64,000 nucleotides of DNA from Solirubrobacterales bacterium (GTDB taxonomy: Bacteria; Actinomycetota; Thermoleophilia; Solirubrobacterales; Solirubrobacteraceae), in the NCBI GenBank assembly GCA_027306855.1, contig DAHUYZ010000001.1, positions 1-64,000 on the forward strand, written 5' to 3'. Below the pieces are notes generated by a model. That model made no database searches. It saw only the letters and a list, made by a program, of their open reading frames with translations, and had not been told where the DNA came from. Shown here piece after piece: positions 43,399 to 58,933 of the stretch. Both the position numbers and the translations under genes were made by a program. How positions within the stretch are numbered: the stretch's first letter is position 1; every line of letters begins with the position of its first letter.

Positions 43399-43617
43399 AT
43401 GCACCAGCGCGTACGCTGCCCTCACTGCCATCACTGGACCGACGCGCTGCTCGTATGGGCCGCCGGCGACTGCTGCCCGAGCTGCAACCGGCCGATGAGC
43501 GGCCTTGCGAGGACATTCGCCGAGGAAGAGGAGCAGCCGCTACGCACGCCGCCTGACCTGTCACGATCTCGGCCTGACCGCATCTACGGAGCCACGCGCA
43601 TCTCAGGCGGCGCATAG
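43399..43617 (+). CDS. Possible small zinc-ribbon protein
   Basis: 72 residues with two knuckles, CPHCHHW at 8-14 and CCPSCNRP at about 25-32, suitable for one zinc ion, and an acidic then basic C-terminus. It overlaps the next gene by about 113 bp if that gene starts at 43505, so one of the two starts is wrong or they genuinely overlap. No clear ribosome site. Codon use fits the genome. Confidence 0.4.
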   Translation: MHQRVRCPHCHHWTDALLVWAAGDCCPSCNRPMSGLARTFAEEEEQPLRTPPDLSRSRPDRIYGATRISGGA

Positions 43618-45325
43618 CCGAGCGGTCGCGGCCACCGATCGCGGGGCGAGCCCGCTCGGAGGACGCCTACCCGCGGGCCGCCTGCTCGAGGGCACTGTCC
43701 TGACACTGCTGGCCGGGCTGGCGGCATCGCTGCCCGTCATCGCCTCGACGGTCAAAGGGCTCGGCGAAGGCCTGACGCCTACAGGCGACAGGGCGATCAT
43801 CGCCACGCGCGCCTACGACGTCTTCAGCTCGCACACGCCGCTCGTCGGCCAGTACTCGGCCTCGACGGTGCTCTACAGCCACATAGTCCACAGCCTCGGG
43901 CCGATGCTCTACTGGCTGATTGCGCTCCCCTCGCGGTTCGGGTCCGCGACCACTCCGGACGTCGTGATCGCGGCGGTCAACGTGCTCGCGATCTTTGCGA
44001 CGGTCGCGCTTGCGCGCCGGCGAGGCGGGGTCCCGCTGATGCTCGCCACGGCGGGGACGCTCGCGCTGATGTGCAACTCCTTCTCGCCCGAGACCCTGCA
44101 TGACATCTGGAACCCATCGGCTGGGCTGCTGCCGTTCACGCTGCTGTTGTTCGTGTCTTGGTCGCTCGCGTGCGGCGAATACCGGCTGCTGCCGGCTGGG
44201 ATCGTGCTGGCGAGCTTCGCGGCACAGTGCGAGCTCGTGTTCCTGCTACCCAGCGTTGGCGTGCTCGCGGTCGGGGTCTTTGGGCTCCTGACTCATGCCG
44301 CAGGCCGCGCCAAGGCCTGGCCCTGGTGGATCGCCGCGCTGGTCGCGGGTCTTGCCTGCTGGAGCGCGCCGATCGTCAATGAGCTGACCAGCCATCCGGG
44401 CAACCTGACGCTCGCTGCCGAAGCGGCGCTATCGCACGGGCCGACGCTGGGACTGACGGCCGGATGGAGAGCGGTCGTGCACGCGATCGGGATCCCGCCG
44501 TGGTGGCTTCAGTCGCCGAGCAATCCGTTCGGACGGGCGGGCGACGTGCGCTCGCCTGCCAGCGCACTGGCGACGATCTCGTGCTTGGTCATCCTCTGCG
44601 GGCTGCTCATCGTCGGCATGGCCGGGCTGCGTCGCCGTCGCCGTGACGTGCCCGCCGCGGCCATGATCGGCCTCCTGCTGTGCCTCAGTCTCGCCGCGGT
44701 GACGTCATCCAACCCGACGCGCCCGTCGCTGATCCCGTCGCTCGGCTACACGCTGTGGTTCGGGTCGGCTGCGGGCATGTGGGTGTGGCTGACGATCGGG
44801 TGGTCGATCGCGACCCTCTACGGCGTGCGGTTGAGACGCCCTGCGCCGGCGGGTGCCTCGAGGGCGCGGGCGCTCGCAGGGCGCGCGCCCGCAGCTGGTA
44901 TCGCTCTGGGACTGCTCGCAGTTCTCGCCGTCGGAACGGCTGTCGCTCTCGGCGAGGGACGCGATCAGGACGGCGACGAGTACAAGCCCGTCAAGACGGT
45001 CAACGCCGCCATCGAGCATGCGCTGGGGCCCTCCGATCGGGTGGTGCTCGTGCTGGGAGCGCACGACTTCACCGCGTTCGACTTCAGGGCCGCCGTCGTC
45101 TATGACCTGCGTAGGCGCGGCATACGCGTCTACGACCCGGCGGCGAGCGTGCGGCTCGGATCGTGGTACGAGCCGGGCAAACACAACGTCGACGCGACGG
45201 TGTACGTGTATGACGAAACGCGGCCTCCAATGCATGGGCGCGTGATCGCCAAGGTCTCCTATGGCGTCCGCCCGCACCACACGATCACCGTGATGGTCGC
45301 AAGGGCGCGACGCGCTTCGGGTTGA
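43505..45325 (+). CDS. Multi-pass membrane protein, paralogue of the convergent 45285-47108 gene
   Basis: Up to 606 residues with about ten hydrophobic helices. Segments shared with the neighbour are TRAYDVFSSHTPLVGQYS, GPMLYWLIALPSRFGS, LHDIWNPSAGLLPFTLL and HPGNLTLAAE. A soluble C-terminal domain (about 490-600) follows, with KTVNAAIEHALGPSDRVVLV and RGIRVYDPAASVRLGSWYEP. The layout recalls membrane glycosyltransferases of the GT-C type (first periplasmic loop with an acidic residue, then a C-terminal extracytoplasmic domain), but no DXD is certain. The start is uncertain: only a TTG at 43505 is available, and homology with the paralogue begins at about residue 62. Confidence 0.78.
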   Translation: MRGHSPRKRSSRYARRLTCHDLGLTASTEPRASQAAHSRAVAATDRGASPLGGRLPAGRLLEGTVLTLLAGLAASLPVIASTVKGLGEGLTPTGDRAIIATRAYDVFSSHTPLVGQYSASTVLYSHIVHSLGPMLYWLIALPSRFGSATTPDVVIAAVNVLAIFATVALARRRGGVPLMLATAGTLALMCNSFSPETLHDIWNPSAGLLPFTLLLFVSWSLACGEYRLLPAGIVLASFAAQCELVFLLPSVGVLAVGVFGLLTHAAGRAKAWPWWIAALVAGLACWSAPIVNELTSHPGNLTLAAEAALSHGPTLGLTAGWRAVVHAIGIPPWWLQSPSNPFGRAGDVRSPASALATISCLVILCGLLIVGMAGLRRRRRDVPAAAMIGLLLCLSLAAVTSSNPTRPSLIPSLGYTLWFGSAAGMWVWLTIGWSIATLYGVRLRRPAPAGASRARALAGRAPAAGIALGLLAVLAVGTAVALGEGRDQDGDEYKPVKTVNAAIEHALGPSDRVVLVLGAHDFTAFDFRAAVVYDLRRRGIRVYDPAASVRLGSWYEPGKHNVDATVYVYDETRPPMHGRVIAKVSYGVRPHHTITVMVARARRASG

Positions 45326-47108
45326 CGACCGGGGCGATCGACACCGTTACGGTTCTGATCCCCCCTAGGCCCTGCCCGGAGGGCGTAAAGCCTCTTGGTT
45401 CGCGCATGGCCACGTGGGCAACGATCCTTGCGTGGGGATCGTGAGACGCAAGACGGTCATAGGCATAGACGACGTACCGGTAGGGGTTGTGGTCGAGCTC
45501 ATACCACGGCCCGAGTCGCGCGATCGCCCCGTACTGGAGGATGCGCAGGCGTTCGCGGCGCAATAGGAACTTGATCGCCTGGTCCAGTGGAGCGGCGACG
45601 CCGCCGAGCGAGGCACGCAGGTTGATCGTCGCTCCGTGCGGGAGCTTCGCCCCTTCCAATTGGCTCTCGATCGATGCGATCGGGCCGTACTCCGCGCGGT
45701 GTGCGTCTCTCGGCTGGGCGATCGCCACCGATCCCGCGATCGGCACGGCCGCGCAGATACCGAGCACGGTGAGACCGGCGGCCGACACCGGGTGCCCGAG
45801 CGATGCAGGCCACGAGCGAGCCGACAGGGCTTCGCGCGCGAACTCGACCACGGAGAAGCCAAGCGCCAACCACACGAACATGCCCGCGACCGAACCCCAC
45901 CAGAGCGTGTAGCCGAGAACTTTGAACGAACCGACAGGCGTGCTCGCAGCGACGGCAGCGAAGGCAGCGCACAGCAGCAGGCCGATCGCGGCGGCCGATG
46001 CGATGTCGACGCGCCTGCGCCACGCGCCCGCCGTTCCCGCCGTAAGCAGCGCCGCCAGGATGGCTATGCACGAGATGACCGCGAGCGCGCTCGGCGCGGT
46101 CGTGACGTCACTCAACCGCGTGTCATAGAGGTCGCCGGGCGTGCGCAGCCAACGCGGCGGGATCCCTATTGCGCGAACGACCGCACGTGCTCCGGCGGTC
46201 GTACCCATCTTCTTGGAATGCATCGTCGCCGCCTGGTAGAGCAGCGTCAGGTTCCCCGGGCTGTGCTCGATCTCGTCGATCGCCGCAGGGGCCCAGCAGA
46301 GCATGAGCACCGCGAGCGCCGCCAGCAGCCATGGCCACAACGGACCCGGCCGCGCCCGACCTCGACGCACCGCCCGCGATGCGCTTGGAAGGGCCGGCAT
46401 CTCACGAGTGTCGGGCTCGCCGCTTTCGAGACCCCTCTTGCCTCGGGGACGCCGGCGGGAGATCGGCAGCCCAATCAGACCGACTGCTGCCAGTCCGAGC
46501 GTCGGGGCCAGGAACGCGACCTGACACTGCGCGGTGAAGCTCGCGAGAAGCGCAACGGCCGGGAGCAGCCGGTGCTCACCGCACGCGAGCGACCAGCACA
46601 GGAAGACGAGCAGAGCGAACGGGAGCAGACCGGCGGATGGGTTCCACGGGTCGTGTAGGGCCTCGGGCATGAACGAGCGGCACATGACGGCGACCGCGAC
46701 GCAGGCGACGAGCATCAGGACGATGCCTCCCCGTTTGCGTGCGAGCGCCACGATCGCGATCGCGCAGAGGGCGTTGGCGATCCCCATCGCAAGCGCGATC
46801 GTGTGAGGCGAGCCGAAGCGGGCGGGCAACGCGATCAGCCAATAGAGCATCGGCCCAGGGCTGTAGGTCAGGTGGCCGACGACTTCCGAGACGAGCGAAT
46901 ACTGTCCTACGAGCGGGCTGTGTGAGCTGAAGACGTCATAGGCGCGCGTGGCGATGATCCCCTGATCGCCTGCGGGCATCCACAGATCGGACAGCGCTCT
47001 CGCCAGCGAGACGACGATCGGAAGCGCTGCGATCAGGCCAGCCAGCAACGTCAGCGGCCACCCCGCGATCCAGCTTCGCGAGCGAGCTTCGACGTCGTTG
47101 GGAAGCAC
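45285..47108 (-). CDS. Multi-pass membrane protein, paralogue of the convergent 43505-45325 gene
   Basis: 607 residues with the same plan as its neighbour: ATRAYDVFSSHSPLVGQYS after the first helix, GPMLYWLIALPARFGS, ALHDPWNPSAGLLPFALL, SPGNLTLLYQAA, and a C-terminal soluble domain (about 495-605). A basic insert rich in Arg and Pro (about 225-260) is peculiar to this copy. It looks like a GT-C-type glycosyltransferase by topology only, and the substrate is unknown. The two genes overlap tail to tail by 41 bp, so each mRNA has an antisense 3' end. Confidence 0.8.
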   Translation of the reverse strand: MLPNDVEARSRSWIAGWPLTLLAGLIAALPIVVSLARALSDLWMPAGDQGIIATRAYDVFSSHSPLVGQYSLVSEVVGHLTYSPGPMLYWLIALPARFGSPHTIALAMGIANALCAIAIVALARKRGGIVLMLVACVAVAVMCRSFMPEALHDPWNPSAGLLPFALLVFLCWSLACGEHRLLPAVALLASFTAQCQVAFLAPTLGLAAVGLIGLPISRRRPRGKRGLESGEPDTREMPALPSASRAVRRGRARPGPLWPWLLAALAVLMLCWAPAAIDEIEHSPGNLTLLYQAATMHSKKMGTTAGARAVVRAIGIPPRWLRTPGDLYDTRLSDVTTAPSALAVISCIAILAALLTAGTAGAWRRRVDIASAAAIGLLLCAAFAAVAASTPVGSFKVLGYTLWWGSVAGMFVWLALGFSVVEFAREALSARSWPASLGHPVSAAGLTVLGICAAVPIAGSVAIAQPRDAHRAEYGPIASIESQLEGAKLPHGATINLRASLGGVAAPLDQAIKFLLRRERLRILQYGAIARLGPWYELDHNPYRYVVYAYDRLASHDPHARIVAHVAMREPRGFTPSGQGLGGIRTVTVSIAPVVNPKRVAPLRPSR

Positions 47109-51522: not shown

Positions 51523-51894
51523 CTAGCCCGGGCCGGTGAGCTCGCCGAGGACCGCTTGCGACTCCGTGAGGCTCGAGGTGAGGATCTGCCTGGATATGTC
51601 CAGGAGCTGGAAGACGCGGGGGTCGCGAACCGCGTAGTAGACGTTCGTGCCCTCGCGACGAGCCTCGAGGATGCCGTGCGTGCGAAGCACCCCTAGATGC
51701 TGGGAGGTTCCACTCGAGTCCATCTTCAACTGATGCTGCAGGTCGCCGACCGTGCGCTCACCGTCTCTGAGAAGCTCGAGGATGCGCACGCGCACAGGGT
51801 GACCGAGGATCCGGAAGAATTCGGCCTTCATCTGGTAGACGGCACTGCGCTGGACGGCCTCCCCAGGCGCCTTGCCTCCTGACGGCGGACTCAC
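51523..51894 (-). CDS. ArsR-family regulator of the Hyf-like operon (Rv0081-like)
   Basis: 123 residues with the winged helix of ArsR/SmtB proteins: MKAEFFRILGHPVRVRILEL, then GERTVGDLQHQLKMDSSGTS, QHLGVLRTHGILEARREGTN and VYYAVRDPRVFQLL. The metal-box cysteines (ELCVC) are absent, so it should sense something other than metal, or act as a hub. GTG 51894 is preferred over TTG 51948 because GGAGAG sits at the right distance. It lies at the 3' end of the complex operon. In M. tuberculosis a homologous gene, Rv0081, begins the hyc-like locus. Confidence 0.86.
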   Translation of the reverse strand: MSPPSGGKAPGEAVQRSAVYQMKAEFFRILGHPVRVRILELLRDGERTVGDLQHQLKMDSSGTSQHLGVLRTHGILEARREGTNVYYAVRDPRVFQLLDISRQILTSSLTESQAVLGELTGPG

Positions 51895-51925
51895 CGTACG
51901 GCTCTCCAAACGCGAGGCGAAAAAG

Positions 51926-52414
51926 TCAAGGGCATCCGCAACGGGCAATCTTAGAAGAGCGTGAACTGAGCATCAAATCAACCAGCGCGTCCGCAATCTG
52001 TTGTGGAGTGGGTGGGCAGCCGGGGATGCGCAGGCTCACAGGCAGGATCCCCTCCAGTGGCCCGGCAAGCTGGGCGGGGTCGCCGAGGGTATTGTGGCCG
52101 ATCGCACAGTCCCCCAGCGCGGCGACGAGGCGCGGCTCGGGCATCGCGTCATAGGCGCGACGCAGCGGATCGACCATGCGAGTGGTGATCTGACCCGTGA
52201 CGAGCAGCACATCGGCATGCCGAGGGGAGGCGACTATGCCCAGCCCGTGGCGCTGCAGGTCGTAATAGGGATTGGCGCTCGCCGCAAGCTCGTGCTCGCA
52301 GCCGTTGCACGAGCCGGCGTCGACGTGGCGCAACGCGAGCGAGCCGCAGCGCTGGGCGCGGGGGAGCGCGATCTCGCGGCGGACGCGCCCTAGGTGTCTG
52401 AGCAGCACGAACAT
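51926..52414 (-). CDS. hyfI: Hyf/Hyc-type small subunit (NuoB-like 4Fe-4S protein)
   Basis: A 162-residue electron-transfer subunit. The four ligands of the proximal 4Fe-4S cluster are Cys36 and Cys39 (SCNGCEHE), Cys103 (GDCAIG) and Cys133 (PGCPPTP). It corresponds to HyfI/HycG and to M. tuberculosis Rv0082. It would pass electrons to or from the large subunit at 52418-53899. ATG 52414 starts 3 bp after the large-subunit stop. No separate ferredoxin-like subunit (HycB/HyfA type) is encoded here. Confidence 0.88.
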   Translation of the reverse strand: MFVLLRHLGRVRREIALPRAQRCGSLALRHVDAGSCNGCEHELAASANPYYDLQRHGLGIVASPRHADVLLVTGQITTRMVDPLRRAYDAMPEPRLVAALGDCAIGHNTLGDPAQLAGPLEGILPVSLRIPGCPPTPQQIADALVDLMLSSRSSKIARCGCP

Positions 52415-52417
52415 GCC

Positions 52418-53899
52418 CTAGCGATCCACGCAGGCGTAGCAGAGCTCGAAGCTCTTGTTGATCAGGGGAAAGTCCGGGAGCAGGTTGTCGCGGGTAGCGC
52501 ACACCAGCACCGGCCAGTTCGCGTAGGACCCCGTGCGCAGGTGCAGACGCTCGACGGCGCGTCGATCGGTCTTTACGACGCACACCGTCTCACCGCGCGG
52601 GCTCTCCACCCTGGCCACGCCGAGGCCGGTCAGAGCCGCGTCCCCTGGCTTGAAGTCGCCCGGCTCGGCACCTCCCGGCTTGACGCCGCCCGGCGTGACG
52701 CGAGAGCTGAGCAGCTGATCGAGGATCGCGAAGGTCTGCTCGAGCTCTATCTGGCGAACGTTTAGGCGAGCGCTCACGTCGCCTGTGGCACGCAACAGGG
52801 TGGCGGGCGTAAAGGAGCGGTAGGCCAGCCGCGGGCTTTCGCTGCGCGTATCGTGGCGCAAGCCCGTTGCGCGCGCGACGGGTCCTGTCGCGCCAAGGCG
52901 CTCGGCGTCTGCCCGGGTGAGCGCCCCGACGCCGTCAAGGCGGTCCTGTAGCGAAGCGGCGAACTGCAGCTCGCGCCACACGCGACCCTCTTCTTGATGC
53001 AGCGCTGCCAGCTCCTCGCGGGCCGCGAGGGCGTCGGCTTGCCCGATACGCAGCGTGCTGGCACCGAGCGCAACGGTGTCGAACAGGAAGCGGTGGCCGC
53101 TCAGGCGCTGGTTGAGACGTTGCGCGCGCTCTTTGAATCCGGCGAACGCCGTCGCGCCCGGAGCGAAGCCGACGCCGGCGCAGATCGCGGAGATGTCATT
53201 GAGGTGGTTGTAGAGCCGCTCGAGCTCCAGCAGCAGCGTACGGGCTTGACGCAGTTGCCGGTCCGGTGTGAAGCCGAGCGCCGACTCGCACGCCTGCGCG
53301 TAGGCCACCGTGTTGGTCACCGCGCAGGCCCCGCACACGCGCTGGACGTGGCGCAGTCCCTCGGCCAGCGACCGCCCCTCGGCGGCGATCTGCAGGCCCC
53401 GATGCTTGTAGAAGAGACGCAGGTCGAGATGCAGGATCCGCTCGCCGACGACCGCGAAGAGGAAGTGCCCGGACTCGATCACCCCGGCATGGATCGGCCC
53501 GACCGCGACCCGGTAGGCGTCGTGACCGTGGATGGGAACCGTCCACGCATCCGGCTCGGCGGGATGGTCGATCAGCGAACGTAAAGGCTCGTGCCCGTCG
53601 AAGCGCAGCCCGTAGCAGTCGTGCGCCTCGCGCTCGTCCCACTCCGCCGCAGCGAACAGGTCGACGATCGTGTCGATCTCCCCGCCCGGCGCAGACGCGC
53701 ATACGACGTGGTCCTGATCGGCATGGGCGAACACGCAATTCGCCTGCAAGCCCATAGGACCGCGACCGGCGAACAATCCGCAGAAGCGCCCGCCGGCCCC
53801 GGACTGGCGTTCGCACGCCATGCGCCACTCTCGTGCTCTGACGTACTCGACCGCCGCCGGCGCGAGACCCGGCACGATGGACACGTGGCGTGTGCTCAC
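52418..53899 (-). CDS. hyfG: Hydrogenase-like large subunit (NuoCD/HyfG/HycE type)
   Basis: 493 residues. A NuoC-like part (about 20-115, with DEREAHDCYGLRFDGHEPLR) is fused to a NuoD/hydrogenase part starting PIHAGVIESGHFLF. The L1 cysteines are Cys189 and Cys192 (RVCGAC), and L2 is Cys487-Tyr-Ala-Cys490 (ELCYACVDR) at the extreme C-terminus. NuoD lacks these cysteines, so a metal site like that of group 4 [NiFe]-hydrogenases is suggested. The His of L1 and the Asp-Pro of L2 are not conserved. Residues 402-420 are a Pro/Gly-rich insert. GTG 53899 overlaps the hyfF stop (GTGA). It corresponds to Rv0087 in length. Confidence 0.87.
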   Translation of the reverse strand: MSTRHVSIVPGLAPAAVEYVRAREWRMACERQSGAGGRFCGLFAGRGPMGLQANCVFAHADQDHVVCASAPGGEIDTIVDLFAAAEWDEREAHDCYGLRFDGHEPLRSLIDHPAEPDAWTVPIHGHDAYRVAVGPIHAGVIESGHFLFAVVGERILHLDLRLFYKHRGLQIAAEGRSLAEGLRHVQRVCGACAVTNTVAYAQACESALGFTPDRQLRQARTLLLELERLYNHLNDISAICAGVGFAPGATAFAGFKERAQRLNQRLSGHRFLFDTVALGASTLRIGQADALAAREELAALHQEEGRVWRELQFAASLQDRLDGVGALTRADAERLGATGPVARATGLRHDTRSESPRLAYRSFTPATLLRATGDVSARLNVRQIELEQTFAILDQLLSSRVTPGGVKPGGAEPGDFKPGDAALTGLGVARVESPRGETVCVVKTDRRAVERLHLRTGSYANWPVLVCATRDNLLPDFPLINKSFELCYACVDR

Positions 53900-55371
53900 G
53901 CGATGCCTCGCATGATGGCGACGCCGGCGTGTGAAGCGACGAGCAGATACGCGCCCGCCGACAGCGCCAGCAGGCCGAGCGCGATCGCAACGGTCAGCCG
54001 GCTCGCCAGGCGCACCGTGCGCCCGACAGCCCAGCGGCGGCCATGACTGTCGCCGGCGAGCGTCTCGATCAGCGCGTGCGCAAGCCCGAGAAAGCCGAGC
54101 GCCAACAACACGGCGGCGATCGTCACGAGAGCTGTCTCGTGGGCCGTGACACCGCCGAGCAGGATCAGCAGCTCGCTGAAGAACAGCGGCGATGGCGGCA
54201 ATCCGGCGAGGGCGCCGAGGCTTATGCCAACCGCGGCGGCGGTCGCGGGGCTCTGCCTGCTGAGCCCACGGGGCGCGCGGCGCGCACTGTCGGGGTCGTG
54301 GCGCGCGAGCGGCAACGCCGTGTAGAAGGCGAGCGACTTGGCCAGGCCGTGCCCTGCGACATGGACGATCACGCCGATGGCTGCGAGCGGGGTGGCGAAG
54401 CCGACCCCTAGCGCAAGGATGCCCATGTGCTCGAGGCTCGAGTAGGCAAGCAGCCGCTTCCAGGCCATCCTCCGCCACAGGAACGGCACGGCGATCGCGA
54501 GCGAGGCGAGCCCGAAGGCGAGCATCAGGTCCCGGGCCAGATGGTGGGAGACGGTCGCGCCGAGTGTGAGCGCCACACGCCAGGCGATCAGCATCACCGT
54601 CGGCAGCAGGGCGGCCGAGAGCAGCGCGCTGACCGGCGGCGGCGCCTCGCTGTGAGCGTCGGGTAGCCAGTTGTGCACCGGCGCCAGCCCGATCTTCGCG
54701 GCCAGCCCGACGAGGATCAGGATCAGCGATACGACGGCCGTCCGGTCGGACAGGTGCGCGGAGTGCGCTGCCAGGCTCTGCCAGTCGAGCGTCGCAAGCG
54801 TCCCTCCGTGCGGGGAGAGGCCGACAAACAGGATCAGTATCCCCAGCAGCGCGACGGCGAGGCCGAAGGTCGTCAGCACGAGGTACTTCCAGCCGGCCTC
54901 CAAAGCGTTCGTGCTGCCGCTGAAGGCGACCAGCAACGCCGAGGCGCCGGTGGTTGCCTCGACCAGCAGCCAAGCGACGCCGAGGTTCTTCACCAACGCA
55001 AGTGCGAGCAGCGCTGCCCAGAAGAGATGAAAGCCCGTGTAGTACCACTCGCGCGCGCGGCGCGCGGTAAAGAAGCTCCTGCCGGATCCGGCCAGGTAGG
55101 TGGGCGAGACCACCGCGCTGAGCCAGCCGATCGCCGCGATCACCGCCAGGAAGCTCGCCCCGCCACGGTCGAGCAGGTACCAGGAGCCCCCGAGTCCGTG
55201 CCCGCTCTGGACCACGCCGAGTGCGCTTGCGGCAAGCGCCACGGCGGCGGTGACGCTCGCGCTGAAGATGTTCAACCGGTCGGCCCAGACAGGCGTGCGC
55301 ACCGCCGCCCGTATGAGCAGCGCCCCCAGCAGGGGTGCCGCCGGCACGGCGATGAGCAGTGCGCTCGTCAT
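53896..55371 (-). CDS. hyfF: Hyf-type antiporter-like membrane subunit (HyfF/HycQ-like)
   Basis: A 491-residue NuoL/M/N-like protein with about 14 helices. The conserved charged residues fall in IGLAPVHNWLPDAHSEAPPP (TM7-8 lysine and histidine region) and HVAGHGLAKSLAFYTALPLA (TM12 Lys). It also has KNLGVAWLLVEATTGASALL. It would pump protons or Na+ in the membrane arm. The start ATG 55371 lies 72 bp after the hyfE stop and has no strong ribosome site. The corresponding M. tuberculosis gene is Rv0086. Confidence 0.86.
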   Translation of the reverse strand: MTSALLIAVPAAPLLGALLIRAAVRTPVWADRLNIFSASVTAAVALAASALGVVQSGHGLGGSWYLLDRGGASFLAVIAAIGWLSAVVSPTYLAGSGRSFFTARRAREWYYTGFHLFWAALLALALVKNLGVAWLLVEATTGASALLVAFSGSTNALEAGWKYLVLTTFGLAVALLGILILFVGLSPHGGTLATLDWQSLAAHSAHLSDRTAVVSLILILVGLAAKIGLAPVHNWLPDAHSEAPPPVSALLSAALLPTVMLIAWRVALTLGATVSHHLARDLMLAFGLASLAIAVPFLWRRMAWKRLLAYSSLEHMGILALGVGFATPLAAIGVIVHVAGHGLAKSLAFYTALPLARHDPDSARRAPRGLSRQSPATAAAVGISLGALAGLPPSPLFFSELLILLGGVTAHETALVTIAAVLLALGFLGLAHALIETLAGDSHGRRWAVGRTVRLASRLTVAIALGLLALSAGAYLLVASHAGVAIMRGIA

Positions 55372-55443
55372 GTCGCGCAACCACCACAGCCGGCACGAGG
55401 GCGCCGGTGACGGGACCCAACGGGCGCGGCGAGGATCAGAGCG

Positions 55444-56061
55444 TCAGTCACGGAGCACCTCCAGCAGGGAGCTGTCGCCGCTGCCGAGCCGCTCGTGGAT
55501 CTTGGCGGCAAACGCGGCCGCCACCGACACGACCACGACAAGGTCGAACACGAGTCCGAGCTCGATGAACGCCGGCAGGCCGGACGGCAGGGAGAGACCC
55601 GCCAGATAGACCCCGTTCTCGGCGATCAGGAACCCCAGCGCCTGGAAGAGCACCGCGCGGCGGACGACTGCGACGAGGATGCCGAGCACCAGCACGCCGA
55701 CCGCGGCATGTTCCACGCCGGCTTCGAGCAGCCCGAAGCGCGGAATCAGCTGCTCGATGGCAAGCGCCACGCTAACCGCGATCGCCAGCCGCGCCAGCGC
55801 GTTAGGCTCGCTGACGATCAGCCGCTCCTTGCGGGCACGCCGGGTCGTGATCAGCAGCAGCGCCGGTAGCAGCAGGCCCTTCGTGATCAGGATCGTCCCG
55901 GCTACCATCGGCGCGGGAGAGGCGGACGGCTCGTGGGTGAGCGCGTACAGACCCAACCCGAGGGCTTGCGCCCCGACGAGCACGATCGCCGTCGAACGGC
56001 GACGCACCACGATAACCGCCAGCGAGCTGACGACCAACCCCCAGATAGCCGCGCCGGTCAT
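55444..56061 (-). CDS. hyfE: Hyf-type small membrane subunit (HyfE/HycP-like, NuoK-related)
   Basis: A 205-residue protein with about six helices. It begins MTGAAIWGLVVSSLAVIVVR and ends with ELGLVFDLVVVVSVAAAFAA. The conserved acidic residue of the NuoK fold may be the Glu in AENGVYLAGLSLPSG. M. tuberculosis Rv0085 (hycP) has a similar length. ATG 56061 overlaps the hyfC stop as ATGA, so translation is coupled. Confidence 0.84.
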   Translation of the reverse strand: MTGAAIWGLVVSSLAVIVVRRRSTAIVLVGAQALGLGLYALTHEPSASPAPMVAGTILITKGLLLPALLLITTRRARKERLIVSEPNALARLAIAVSVALAIEQLIPRFGLLEAGVEHAAVGVLVLGILVAVVRRAVLFQALGFLIAENGVYLAGLSLPSGLPAFIELGLVFDLVVVVSVAAAFAAKIHERLGSGDSSLLEVLRD

Positions 56062-56990
56062 CCACCGCCCCCCACGGCAAGCCAGCTTGCCAGTCCGAGC
56101 AAGCAGAGCGCCGCCCCGGAGCCGAGCAGGAGCGGCACGCGCAGCACCCCCATCTTCGCCTGCACCGTCTCGCACACCGCAAGCGCCACGCTGAGCGCCA
56201 GCACGCCACCCGTCAGCACACCGATTTGCGCCGCGAACGACCCGGGGTGAGGGAACGCCAGTTCGCACGCGAGCACGAGCATGATCCAGTGCCGCGCCGC
56301 AGCGGACCACTGGAGGTAAACCAACTCGCGCCCGGCGTACTCGAGCAGCGGTCCCTCGTGGATCATCGTGAGCTCCAGGTGCGTGTCCGGGTTATCAACA
56401 GGCTGTCGGCCTATCTCGGCCAGCACGACCAGACACAGCCCGATCATGGCTACCCAATGCGCGGGCTTCTCCCACACCTCCGGCAGGGTCGCCGCGTGGC
56501 TCATCGAGAGCAGGTCAGTGCTGCCAGGGGGGAGCGCGAACAGGAGCAGCACGAGCAGCAAGAGCCCCTCGACGAACACCGAGAGCATCAGATCCCGCGC
56601 TGACCCCATCAGCCCGAACGCGCCGGCGGTGTCCCATGCCGCGAGAGCAAGTGCGAAGCGCGCGAGCGCAAGCAGCCCGACCAGGACGAGCGCGTCGTGG
56701 CCGAGTCCCCATTCCGGGGCGAGGTCTGCGATCGGCAGTAACAGGAGCGCGAGCCCTGTGCAGGCCGCCGCAACGGCGGGTGCGAGCGTGTAGATAAGCG
56801 TCCTGGGCTCGGGCGCCACGCCGCTCTTGCCCCACAGCCGGCGAAGCTCGCGGTAGGGCTGGAGAACGGAGGGTCCGCACCTGCCTTGAAGACGCGCCTT
56901 CACTTGCTGGATCAGCCCGACGATCGCCGGACCGAGCAGCACGCCTCCGACCAGCTGGACGGCGCCCGCCGCTACTGTCGCACCGCTCAT
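56058..56990 (-). CDS. hyfC: Hyf-type NuoH-like membrane subunit (HyfC/HycD-like)
   Basis: 310 residues with eight helices. NuoH landmarks are KARLQGRCGPSVLQPYRELR, RLWGKSGVAPEPRTLIY, AEIGRQPVDNPDTHLELTMI and HEGPLLEYAGRELVYLQWS. The charged pathway residues Glu and Asp in the loop are present. It connects the large/small subunit module to the membrane arm. ATG 56990 overlaps the hyfB stop by 4 bp. Corresponds to Rv0084 (hycD). Confidence 0.88.
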   Translation of the reverse strand: MSGATVAAGAVQLVGGVLLGPAIVGLIQQVKARLQGRCGPSVLQPYRELRRLWGKSGVAPEPRTLIYTLAPAVAAACTGLALLLLPIADLAPEWGLGHDALVLVGLLALARFALALAAWDTAGAFGLMGSARDLMLSVFVEGLLLLVLLLFALPPGSTDLLSMSHAATLPEVWEKPAHWVAMIGLCLVVLAEIGRQPVDNPDTHLELTMIHEGPLLEYAGRELVYLQWSAAARHWIMLVLACELAFPHPGSFAAQIGVLTGGVLALSVALAVCETVQAKMGVLRVPLLLGSGAALCLLGLASWLAVGGGG

Positions 56991-58933
56991 CCCAAGACGC
57001 CGATGCGCGCCAGCGCCAGCAGAGCGCCAAGCAAGGCGAGGAGATAGATCAGATAGGCGCGCAGGCTGCCCGACTGCAACCGCCGTGCGACCCGTGCGCC
57101 CCGCAGCGCTCCGCGTGACACGGGCCCGTAGAGCAGCGTGTCGAACAGATGCGGCACCTCCGCGCTGTAGGCGACCGCTTCGACGATCCCAGTCGAGGAG
57201 ACGATGATCTGCGCCTCGCGCCGTGGGCGCAAGAACCCCTCCAGTACCAGCCGCAGCGGCTTGGTGAACCCGGCCGACGTCCATGCCAGCGCTGCTGCGG
57301 GCGGCTGACCGCACGTCCAGGTCGGCGCGGCCGCGATCCGGTGAGCGTGCGCGAGACGGGCAAGCGCTGCCACCAGCGCCACGAGCGCCAGCGCGAGGGC
57401 GAGTGTCGGCAGCGAGCCCGTTCCGGGTACCTCCAGGCTTGTGCTCCCGCCCAGCGAGACACTTCCCGGCGAGAGGGCGGCGAGCCTTCCCACGAGTGGC
57501 CCGGGTAGCACTCCCAGCAGGACACACCCCGCAGCGAGGAAGACCATGCTCGCGCGGATCGCGCCGGGAGCCTCGCTTGCCTGGGCGCACTCTGGGCGAC
57601 GTGGAAGGCCGAGCAACACCAGCCCGATCACCTTCACGAAGCAGTACACCGCCAGAGCCGCCGTCCCGGCCAGCGCGGCCGTCGCGATCGTGCCGGCGAA
57701 GGCCACACCCAGATGAGTGACGCCCCCGAGATGCAGAAGCGATTGCAGCGTCAGCCACTCCGAGGCGAATCCGTTCAGCGGAGGAAGGCCCGCGATCGCC
57801 ATCGCGCCGAGCGCGAACGTCGTGCCCGTCCATGGCATCCGCCGTAACAGGCCCCCCATCCGATCGAGTTCGAGGCTGCCGACCGCCTGAGCTAGAGCCC
57901 CAGCGCCCAGGAACAGCAGCCCCTTGAACAGCGCGTGATTGAGGGCGTGAAGCAGCGCCGCCGCGAACGCGATCGCGCTCCAGGTGTCCGCTCCGATGTC
58001 GCGGAGCACGAGCGAGGCCCCCAGCCCGAGCGCCACGATCCCGACGTTCTCGATCGAGTGAAACGCGAGCAGTCGCTTGAGCTCGTGCTGCATCAGTGCG
58101 TACAGCACTCCGCCAAGGCACGACAGGGAGCCAAGCGCCATCAGCGTGATGCCGACCCATGGCCCAGGCGCTGCCAGCCAATCGAACAGCACGCGCACGA
58201 GCCCGTAGATGGCCAGCTTGATCATCACCCCCGACATCAGGGCAGAGATGTGCGCGGGCGCGAGCGGGTGCGCGCGCGGCAGCCAGGAGTGAAGCGGCAT
58301 GAGGCCGGCCTTCGTCGAGAAGCCGACGAGCGAGGCGCAGGCGACGAACGCCGCGAGACCGCCACCAAGGGAGTGGCCGCCCAAGGCTCCGTGCCAGGCC
58401 AGCGCGAGCATCGACGCCCACACGCAGGCGCCGCCGATGTGGGTGATGGCGAGATAGACGAACACGCCGTGGCGGGCCTCGGTGTCTTGGCGGGCGATCA
58501 GGATCGCGCCCGCCGGGACGAGCGTCATCAGCTCCCAGAACTCCAAGAACGTGCTGACGTCACGCGCGCTCACGAACCCGATCAGCGCCAGCAGGAACGT
58601 TCCCGTCGCGACGGCCAGTGCACGACCACTGCCGTCGGCGCGAAGCGAGTCGCGCGCGAACCAGGCCGCCGGTGCGCCGACGGCGGCGATGATCACGAGG
58701 AAGAACCCGCTGAGCGGATCGAGCCCGAACGCCGGGTGTATGTCGCTGCGAAACGCGGCGCCAAGGGCATGGCCCGAAGCGAGCACCCAAACGCCTGCCG
58801 CACCTGCGAAAAGGACTCCGGTCGACTGGAGCGCCAAGCCGGTGCGTGGCGAGCGACTGGAGCCTGCGTTTATAGCGCCGAGGAAGATCGCGAGCACGCC
58901 GGCGATGGCGAGCGCCTGCGGAGCACCCGTCAA
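56987..58933 (-). CDS. hyfB: Hyf-type NuoL-like proton/Na+ antiporter subunit (HyfB-like)
   Basis: 648 residues with about 16 helices. The family marks are FLEFWELMTLVPAGAILIAR, TKAGLMPLHSWLPRAHPLAP, AALLHALNHALFKGLLFLGA and GTTFALGAMAIAGLPPLNGF. It is the first gene of the complex operon and corresponds to Rv0083 (640 residues). The only standard start in frame is TTG 58933; a stop codon lies further upstream. A palindrome 71-96 bp upstream may bind the ArsR regulator. Confidence 0.86.
   Translation of the reverse strand: MTGAPQALAIAGVLAIFLGAINAGSSRSPRTGLALQSTGVLFAGAAGVWVLASGHALGAAFRSDIHPAFGLDPLSGFFLVIIAAVGAPAAWFARDSLRADGSGRALAVATGTFLLALIGFVSARDVSTFLEFWELMTLVPAGAILIARQDTEARHGVFVYLAITHIGGACVWASMLALAWHGALGGHSLGGGLAAFVACASLVGFSTKAGLMPLHSWLPRAHPLAPAHISALMSGVMIKLAIYGLVRVLFDWLAAPGPWVGITLMALGSLSCLGGVLYALMQHELKRLLAFHSIENVGIVALGLGASLVLRDIGADTWSAIAFAAALLHALNHALFKGLLFLGAGALAQAVGSLELDRMGGLLRRMPWTGTTFALGAMAIAGLPPLNGFASEWLTLQSLLHLGGVTHLGVAFAGTIATAALAGTAALAVYCFVKVIGLVLLGLPRRPECAQASEAPGAIRASMVFLAAGCVLLGVLPGPLVGRLAALSPGSVSLGGSTSLEVPGTGSLPTLALALALVALVAALARLAHAHRIAAAPTWTCGQPPAAALAWTSAGFTKPLRLVLEGFLRPRREAQIIVSSTGIVEAVAYSAEVPHLFDTLLYGPVSRGALRGARVARRLQSGSLRAYLIYLLALLGALLALARIGVLG

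What the first reader, a model, noticed from the sequence alone, without database searches (positions are those of the whole stretch)
52418..52490. Large subunit ends exactly at the site where HycE-type precursors are cut
The protein ends ...ELCYACVDR. In E. coli HycE the HycI protease removes the tail after the Arg that follows the last Cys pair. Here the gene stops at that Arg, so no tail is present. Retained Cys189/192 and Cys487/490 suggest a metal centre, yet the insertion checkpoint that depends on the tail is absent. L1 His and L2 Asp-Pro are also lost. Either a simplified maturation or a non-[NiFe] role is implied.
Basis: partly seen in the sequence, partly recalled or inferred. Interest (0 to 1): 0.75.

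Follow-up and report, generated by a model that had tools for sequence, protein, structure and literature searches.

The report
Hydrogenase-like proton pump without hydrogenase maturation
This gene encodes the core subunit of a membrane complex that looks like a hydrogen-making enzyme and still carries its four metal-holding cysteines, but it is made without the usual maturation tail, in a genome where none of the searched genes for building the nickel-iron centre was found, so it is probably an ion pump of unknown chemistry rather than a hydrogenase.

Summary
The large subunit (52418-53899, minus strand, 493 aa) ends ...SFELCYACVDR-stop. E. coli HycE runs 32 residues further. There is no frameshift.

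The tail-less end is not a local quirk. All 84 alignable relatives with the same ending stop there, and so do relatives that have lost all four cysteines. The literature already reports natural tail-lessness for [NiFe] groups 2b, 2d, 4c, 4e and 4g, so a missing tail alone shows neither simplified maturation nor loss of [NiFe].

The stronger evidence is that the complex ignores the maturation machinery. HypD, HypC, HycI and canonical [NiFe] large subunits were not found in the window's genome. Among 229 class members at least 90% complete, HypD occurs in 15 of 43 genomes with the complex and 61 of 186 without it (p=0.86). Yet Cys189, Cys487 and Cys490 are invariant; Cys192 is conserved in 79 of 85, otherwise Asp (5) or Gly (1).

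A tree places it with cysteine-less Ehr-like (energy-converting hydrogenase-related) complexes, apart from HycE. Best reading: a cysteine-retaining Ehr-type proton pump with a Hyp-independent Cys4/Cys3Asp site. The metal or thiol chemistry and the substrate are inferred, not shown. New variant of a known kind.

The parts
52418..53899 (-). Large subunit, fused 30-kDa (NuoC-like) and 49-kDa (NuoD/HycE-like) domains, 493 aa from GTG 53899; ends ...SFELCYACVDR
   Evidence: best PDB sequence and fold match is HycE of E. coli FHL, 7z0s_E
52418..52447 (-). C-terminal motif E485-L486-C487-Y-A-C490-V-D-R493-stop (replaces DPCxxC-x-D-R plus tail)
   Evidence: C487 80/80, C490 80/80, no residue beyond the Arg in 84/84 relatives
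53312..53341 (-). L1 motif R187-x-C189-G-A-C192-x-x-x-N196 (His of RxCGxCxxxH replaced by Asn)
   Evidence: C189 85/85, C192 79/85 (5 Asp, 1 Gly); position 196 mostly Asn, His in Chloroflexota and part of Bacillota relatives
51926..52414 (-). Small subunit (NuoB/HycG-like) with CNGC...C...C for one proximal [4Fe-4S] cluster
   Evidence: PF01058 E=1.2e-25; Cys36, 39, 103, 133 conserved in 78-80 of 80 relatives
53896..55380 (-). HyfF-like antiporter-type membrane subunit
   Evidence: PF00361 and NCBIfam hydrogenase 4 subunit F models, below the equivalog cut-off
55444..56103 (-). HyfE-like membrane subunit (start codon uncertain)
   Evidence: NF008556 E=1.9e-16, below cut-off
56058..56989 (-). 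HyfC/HycD/NuoH-like membrane subunit
   Evidence: PF00146 E=4.7e-28; most E-channel acidic residues and R100 conserved
56987..58933 (-). HyfB-like antiporter-type membrane subunit
   Evidence: NF005086 E=3e-149, below cut-off; E134, K208, H222, E295, H333, K337, E392 conserved
51523..51948 (-). ArsR-family regulator, last gene of the operon, without any cysteine
   Evidence: PF01022, NF033788; ArsR-type genes also next to the operon in many relatives

Best explanation
The gene is the large subunit of a six-subunit complex, HyfB-C-E-F-large-small, of the complex I / group 4 hydrogenase superfamily. [quoted passage not shown] The tail is missing because the whole clade lacks it, including members with no cysteines, and not as a local shortcut in [NiFe] insertion. 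Shown: Hyp-independent distribution, conserved cysteines, conserved small-subunit cluster ligands and conserved proton-pump residues. Inferred: the four-cysteine pocket (Cys4, in one branch Cys3Asp) holds a simple metal ion or works as a redox-active thiol site, not NiFe(CN)2CO. Electrons from an unidentified carrier would enter through the single [4Fe-4S] cluster of the small subunit, react at this site under the conserved Glu142/Arg435/Glu485 residues, and drive proton movement through HyfC and the antiporter-like HyfB and HyfF.
For: Same end in all 84 alignable relatives and in the cysteine-less ones. HypD, HycI, HypC and canonical PF00374 not found in the window's genome. HypD in 15/43 genomes with the complex against 61/186 without, Fisher p=0.86; HypD-negative cases include single-contig genomes. 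HypC absent in 28 of 29 HypD-negative genomes with the complex, while both controls ring. HypD instead tracks canonical hydrogenases: these are found in 17/21 HypD-positive against 2/32 HypD-negative genomes. C189 85/85, C487 80/80, C490 80/80, E142 and R435 invariant, also in HypD-negative genomes; C192 to Asp in at least two independent branches, a two-base change to a possible metal ligand. Cysteine-retaining and cysteine-less members form one clade (100/99) apart from HycE, a canonical tail-less relative (L161) and NuoD. Antiporter and E-channel residues conserved.
Against: No metal, redox partner or substrate has been identified. The AlphaFold model is unreliable exactly at the C-terminal end (pLDDT below 50 for 475-490), so the geometry of the four cysteines is untested. 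A third of the host genomes do have HypD, so a [NiFe] centre in those is not excluded. C192 to Gly in one member weakens a strict metal-site reading. The window's genome is 92% complete.
Confidence: 0.6

Rival explanations
1. A genuine tail-less [NiFe] hydrogenase, like groups 4c, 4e or the H2-sensing hydrogenases, matured by the normal Hyp machinery.
For: Four cysteines, Glu142 and Arg435 retained; natural tail-less hydrogenases exist (PMC7294309); a third of the host genomes have HypD; some relatives keep the L1 His.
Against: HypD and HypC not found in the window's genome and HypD absent in 28/43 class members with the complex; no association with HypD; L1 His to Asn, DPC to ELC, bridging Cys192 to Asp/Gly in six relatives.
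Confidence: 0.1
2. A sulfane-sulfur or quinone reductase of the MBS / complex I kind, with chemistry at the proximal [4Fe-4S] cluster; the large-subunit cysteines are bystanders.
For: MBS (6u8y_L) also ends at the same Arg and keeps one cysteine of each pair, and those two are not needed for its catalysis (PMC7684303). L1 Asn is also the residue of the genome's own NuoD at that position.
Against: The small subunit has the hydrogenase-type CxxC spacing, whereas MBS catalysis rests on a shortened loop leaving three cluster ligands (PMC7684303). The glutamate equivalent to the MbhL proton donor is invariant here and absent in MBS. Three cysteines are invariant here rather than two. The position of the quinone-binding Tyr of complex I lies in CGAC here.
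Confidence: 0.13
3. A non-redox ion-translocation complex in which the hydrophilic arm is a regulatory or structural remnant.
For: No 2x[4Fe-4S] input subunit in the operon; some cysteine-less relatives (L155, L159) have no small-subunit gene next to the operon at all; pump residues are conserved.
Against: Four small-subunit cluster cysteines (78-80 of 80) and three large-subunit cysteines (all readable sequences) are strongly conserved in this branch, which a remnant would not explain.
Confidence: 0.12
4. Gene decay, frameshift or assembly error removed a tail.
For: None beyond the missing tail.
Against: Relatives end at the same codon across Actinomycetota, Chloroflexota and Bacillota, and the small-subunit gene starts 3 nt later.
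Confidence: 0.01

Closest known systems
[quoted passage not shown] 2013; described in PMC4378227 and PMC10284858)
   Same: Same kind of gene set (HyfB/E, NuoH/L and large-subunit homologues); one clade with cysteine-less Ehr-like large subunits, which share the tail-less C-terminus
   Different: Described Ehr complexes lack the CxxC motifs; here both CxxC motifs are present
Formate hydrogenlyase-1 / hydrogenase 3 of E. coli (HycE, HycG, HycC, HycD)
   Same: Best PDB sequence and fold match; four cysteines, Glu193 and Arg478 equivalents, antiporter residues
   Different: HycE has the L1 His, DPCxxC and a 32-residue tail, with HycI, Hyp and the HycB/HycF electron subunits; the window protein lacks the first three, no HycI, HypC or HypD was found in its genome and no two-cluster electron subunit in its operon
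Tail-less [NiFe] hydrogenases (groups 2b, 2d, 4c, 4e, 4g)
   Same: Large subunit ends at the residue where others are cleaved
   Different: They are reported to rely on the Hyp machinery, which is missing in most genomes with this complex
Membrane-bound sulfane sulfur reductase MBS of Pyrococcus furiosus (6u8y)
   Same: Non-[NiFe] relative whose large subunit ends at the same Arg and keeps part of the cysteines
   Different: Only two cysteines, no proton-donor Glu, three-ligand proximal cluster, Mrp-type membrane arm
Mycobacterium tuberculosis Rv0081-Rv0088 locus (predicted formate hydrogenlyase, with ArsR-type Rv0081)
   Same: A hydrogenase-like locus coregulated by Rv0081 (title of ref. 33 in PMC6177252; ArsR type and gene roles from memory)
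   Different: Not compared directly. The Rhodococcus plasmid relative (L173) has the gene order I recall for Rv0082-Rv0087 and a cysteine-less NKSFNLSYAGNDL end, so Rv0087 may belong to the cysteine-less branch

Membership tests
Group 4 [NiFe] hydrogenase | L1 motif RxCGxCxxxH | tested here: not met
   R-V-C-G-A-C-A-V-T-N: cysteines present, His replaced by Asn
Group 4 [NiFe] hydrogenase | L2 motif DPCxxCxxH/R | tested here: not met
   E-L-C-Y-A-C-V-D-R; Glu-Leu in nearly all relatives of the branch with a readable end
Group 4 [NiFe] hydrogenase | Hyp maturation genes in the genome | tested here: not met
   HypD, HypC, HycI not found in G000; HypD absent in 28/43 class members with the complex
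Group 4 [NiFe] hydrogenase | C-terminal tail removed by an endopeptidase (not required in groups 4c, 4e, 4g) | tested here: not met
   No tail
Group 4 [NiFe] hydrogenase | NiFe(CN)2CO centre and H2 activity | not testable with these tools
   Needs protein and spectroscopy
Ehr complex | Hydrogenase-4-type gene set with complex I-like membrane subunits | tested here: met
   HyfB-C-E-F-large-small in the window and nearly all sufficiently long relative loci
Ehr complex | Large subunit lacks the CxxC ligand motifs | tested here: not met
   Both CxxC motifs present; second Cys of L1 lost in 6 of 85 relatives
Ehr complex | Phylogenetic grouping with Ehr large subunits, outside HycE-type hydrogenases and NuoD | tested here: inconclusive
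MBS sulfane sulfur reductase | Shortened small-subunit loop leaving a three-cysteine proximal cluster | tested here: not met
   CNGC spacing as in hydrogenases (PMC7684303)
Complex I (NuoD) | Quinone-headgroup Tyr and His in the 49-kDa subunit | tested here: not met
   The alignment to Aquifex NuoCD places its Asp-Tyr over C189-Gly190; Glu142 lies at the His position named in PMC9474812; NuoD model score 140.9 against a cut-off of 360

The most novel reading that the evidence does not exclude
A branch of the complex I superfamily, spread over Actinomycetota, Chloroflexota and Bacillota, uses the old [NiFe] pocket with a Hyp-independent Cys4 or Cys3Asp metal site for a so far unknown redox reaction coupled to proton pumping.
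Probability: 0.4. Interest if true: 0.75.

Novelty: new variant of a known kind. Interest (0 to 1): 0.5.

Why it matters
These proteins are easily annotated as formate hydrogenlyase or [NiFe] hydrogenase from their cysteines, and H2 metabolism may be credited to soil Actinomycetota that apparently cannot make the cofactor. The branch also gives an intermediate between group 4 hydrogenases and the cysteine-less Ehr-like complexes: tail gone, L1 His and DPC changed, cysteines kept. The long-standing question of what Ehr complexes do could be approached through a member with a probable catalytic site.

Tried and rejected
Frameshift or assembly artefact hiding a tail: rejected; one apparent longer relative (L093) is a run of N that joins it to the small subunit. 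Stop-codon read-through into the in-frame small subunit: not conserved, since several relatives have an overlapping TGATG in another frame. HypD absence due to incomplete genomes: rejected, since it recurs in 28 genomes of at least 90% completeness, several of them single contigs. The 35-38% relatives in family f5 were first taken as HypD-positive controls; their cysteines turned out to be lost, so they were dropped as controls. Association of Cys192 loss with HypD absence: suggestive only (5 vs 0 entered in the test, p=0.08). That test undercounted by one, since six HypD-negative relatives have lost it, and it ignores kinship. AlphaFold model: good fold match to HycE but disordered at the cysteine end, so not used for site geometry. 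Direct comparison with CooH, EchE and Rv0087 sequences was not made; they were not found in the collections used. A group 4g literature search gave no functional data.

Full report
OBSERVATION. The gene on the minus strand at 52418-53899 encodes a fused 30-kDa/49-kDa subunit that ends SFELCYACVDR-TAG; the small-subunit ATG follows 3 nt after the stop. E. coli HycE, taken from NC_000913, is 569 aa and continues 32 residues past the aligned Arg537. The L1 His is Asn196, and the L2 Asp-Pro is Glu485-Leu486.

SURROUNDINGS. The operon runs HyfB (56987-58933), HyfC/NuoH (to 56058), HyfE, HyfF (53896-55380), large subunit, small subunit (51926-52414), ArsR (51523-51948). In the loci of the family long enough to show it, the order HyfB-C-E-F-large-small is kept, apart from two Bacillota/Chloroflexota loci where HyfE was not detected. 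A two-cluster ferredoxin subunit, the HycF/NuoI type, was not found in the Actinomycetota and Chloroflexota operons; one hit in L088 lies about 4 kb away from the large-subunit gene. It is a separate gene in Alicyclobacillus tolerans (L141), and in Sporomusa (L147) it is fused in front of the small subunit; two related Bacillota loci have a hit of similar length at the same place.

THE TAIL. No residue follows the Arg in 84 of 84 relatives; the one exception, L093, is an N-run artefact. Relatives at 31-38% identity that have lost all four cysteines also stop at the same column...GFAR...GADR...NLSYSGNDL, and on plasmids of Rhodococcus, Allomeiothermus and Azospirillum ...NKSFNLSYAGNDL...NKSFDLSYAGCDL...NKSFNCSYAGHDL. 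So does a canonical DPCYSCTDR relative in a HypD-positive genome (L161). Published work lists natural tail-less [NiFe] large subunits in groups 2b, 2d, 4c, 4e and 4g, and shows that an engineered tail-less R. eutropha MBH still receives the cofactor (PMC7294309; PMC12134894). A missing tail is therefore not evidence for or against a [NiFe] centre.

MATURATION GENES. HypD (PF01924) and HycI (PF01750) were not found in the window's genome, which is 92% complete, nor were HypC (PF01455) or a canonical PF00374 protein. In 229 class members of at least 90% completeness, the close family (E of 1e-99 or better) is in 43, of which 15 have HypD; of the 186 others, 61 have HypD (Fisher p=0.86). HypC is absent in 28 of 29 HypD-negative genomes with the complex, and both positive controls ring. 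HypD instead follows canonical hydrogenases, which were found in 17 of 21 HypD-positive and 2 of 32 HypD-negative genomes. The 2 are metagenome assemblies and may simply lack the HypD contig.

THE SITE. Across up to 85 sequences C189 is 85/85, C487 80/80, C490 80/80 and C192 79/85; E142 (the HycE Glu193 equivalent), R435 (Arg478) and E485 (Asp529) are invariant or nearly so, equally in HypD-negative genomes. Most other cysteines of the protein are poorly conserved; C240 (82/85) and C440 (60/83) are exceptions. C192 became Asp at least twice and Gly once on the tree, all in HypD-negative genomes. Cys to Asp needs two base changes and keeps a possible metal ligand; this is an inference, not a proof of metal binding. 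The small-subunit cluster cysteines are conserved in 78-80 of 80, with the hydrogenase-type CxxC spacing. HyfB keeps E134, K208, H222, E295, H333, K337 and E392, and HyfC most of the E-channel.

KINSHIP. In a maximum-likelihood tree with the C-terminal motif left out, cysteine-retaining and cysteine-less members are one clade (100/99), with HycE, L161 and NuoD outside. His-to-Asn in L1 arose twice. Those papers define Ehr by the loss of the CxxC motifs, a feature tested here and not met. The protein is therefore a cysteine-retaining relative within that clade, not a textbook Ehr member.

HOW IT PROBABLY WORKS. Shown by sequence: a proton-pump membrane arm, one proximal cluster, a conserved cysteine pocket, no tail, and a distribution independent of Hyp. 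Inferred: the pocket holds a simple metal or works as a thiol redox site; electrons come from an unknown carrier; the reaction drives proton translocation. MBS-type chemistry is less likely because of the small-subunit spacing and the retained glutamate (PMC7684303); complex I-type quinone chemistry is less likely because the quinone-site residues are missing. A non-redox role cannot be excluded, since relatives without a neighbouring small-subunit gene exist.

VERDICT. The tail-less end is old and already explained as a class of phenomenon. The open point of interest is why the cysteines persist without the Hyp machinery.

Noticed in passing
L155:5211-10933 and L159:16-6192: Relatives in another family of the class have the operon HyfB-C-E-F-large with all four large-subunit cysteines lost and no small-subunit gene beside it, so possibly no redox centre at all.
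   Followed up: partly
L147:10296-11033 (also L138, L143): In Sporomusa malonica (L147) a two-cluster ferredoxin domain is fused in front of the small subunit; L138 and L143 have a matching hit at the same place that was not scanned.
   Followed up: partly
L174:8266-9138: In Allomeiothermus silvanus plasmid pMESIL01 the small subunit appears to have lost all its cluster cysteines and keeps a degenerate ferredoxin-like front part.
   Followed up: no
window 51523-51948: The ArsR-family regulator overlaps the small-subunit gene and has no cysteine, so it is unlikely to be a cysteine-based metal or sulfide sensor.
   Followed up: no
window 56987-58933: The HyfB-like subunit has a Lys at the position where E. 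coli HycC has Leu208, so its antiporter residue set looks more complete than that of E. coli hydrogenase 3.
   Followed up: partly
L173:1119-8407: A Rhodococcus plasmid carries the operon in the order small-HyfB-C-E-F-large, with a cysteine-less large subunit, close to an IS110 transposase and integrases.
   Followed up: no
window 43505-45325 and 45285-47108: Two similar long membrane-protein ORFs (shared stretch like ATRAYDVFSSHTPLVGQYS) lie on opposite strands end to end, looking like an inverted duplication.
   Followed up: no
genome G255, contig C7:259-447: This genome has the complex and a HypC match near a contig end but no HypD match.
   Followed up: no
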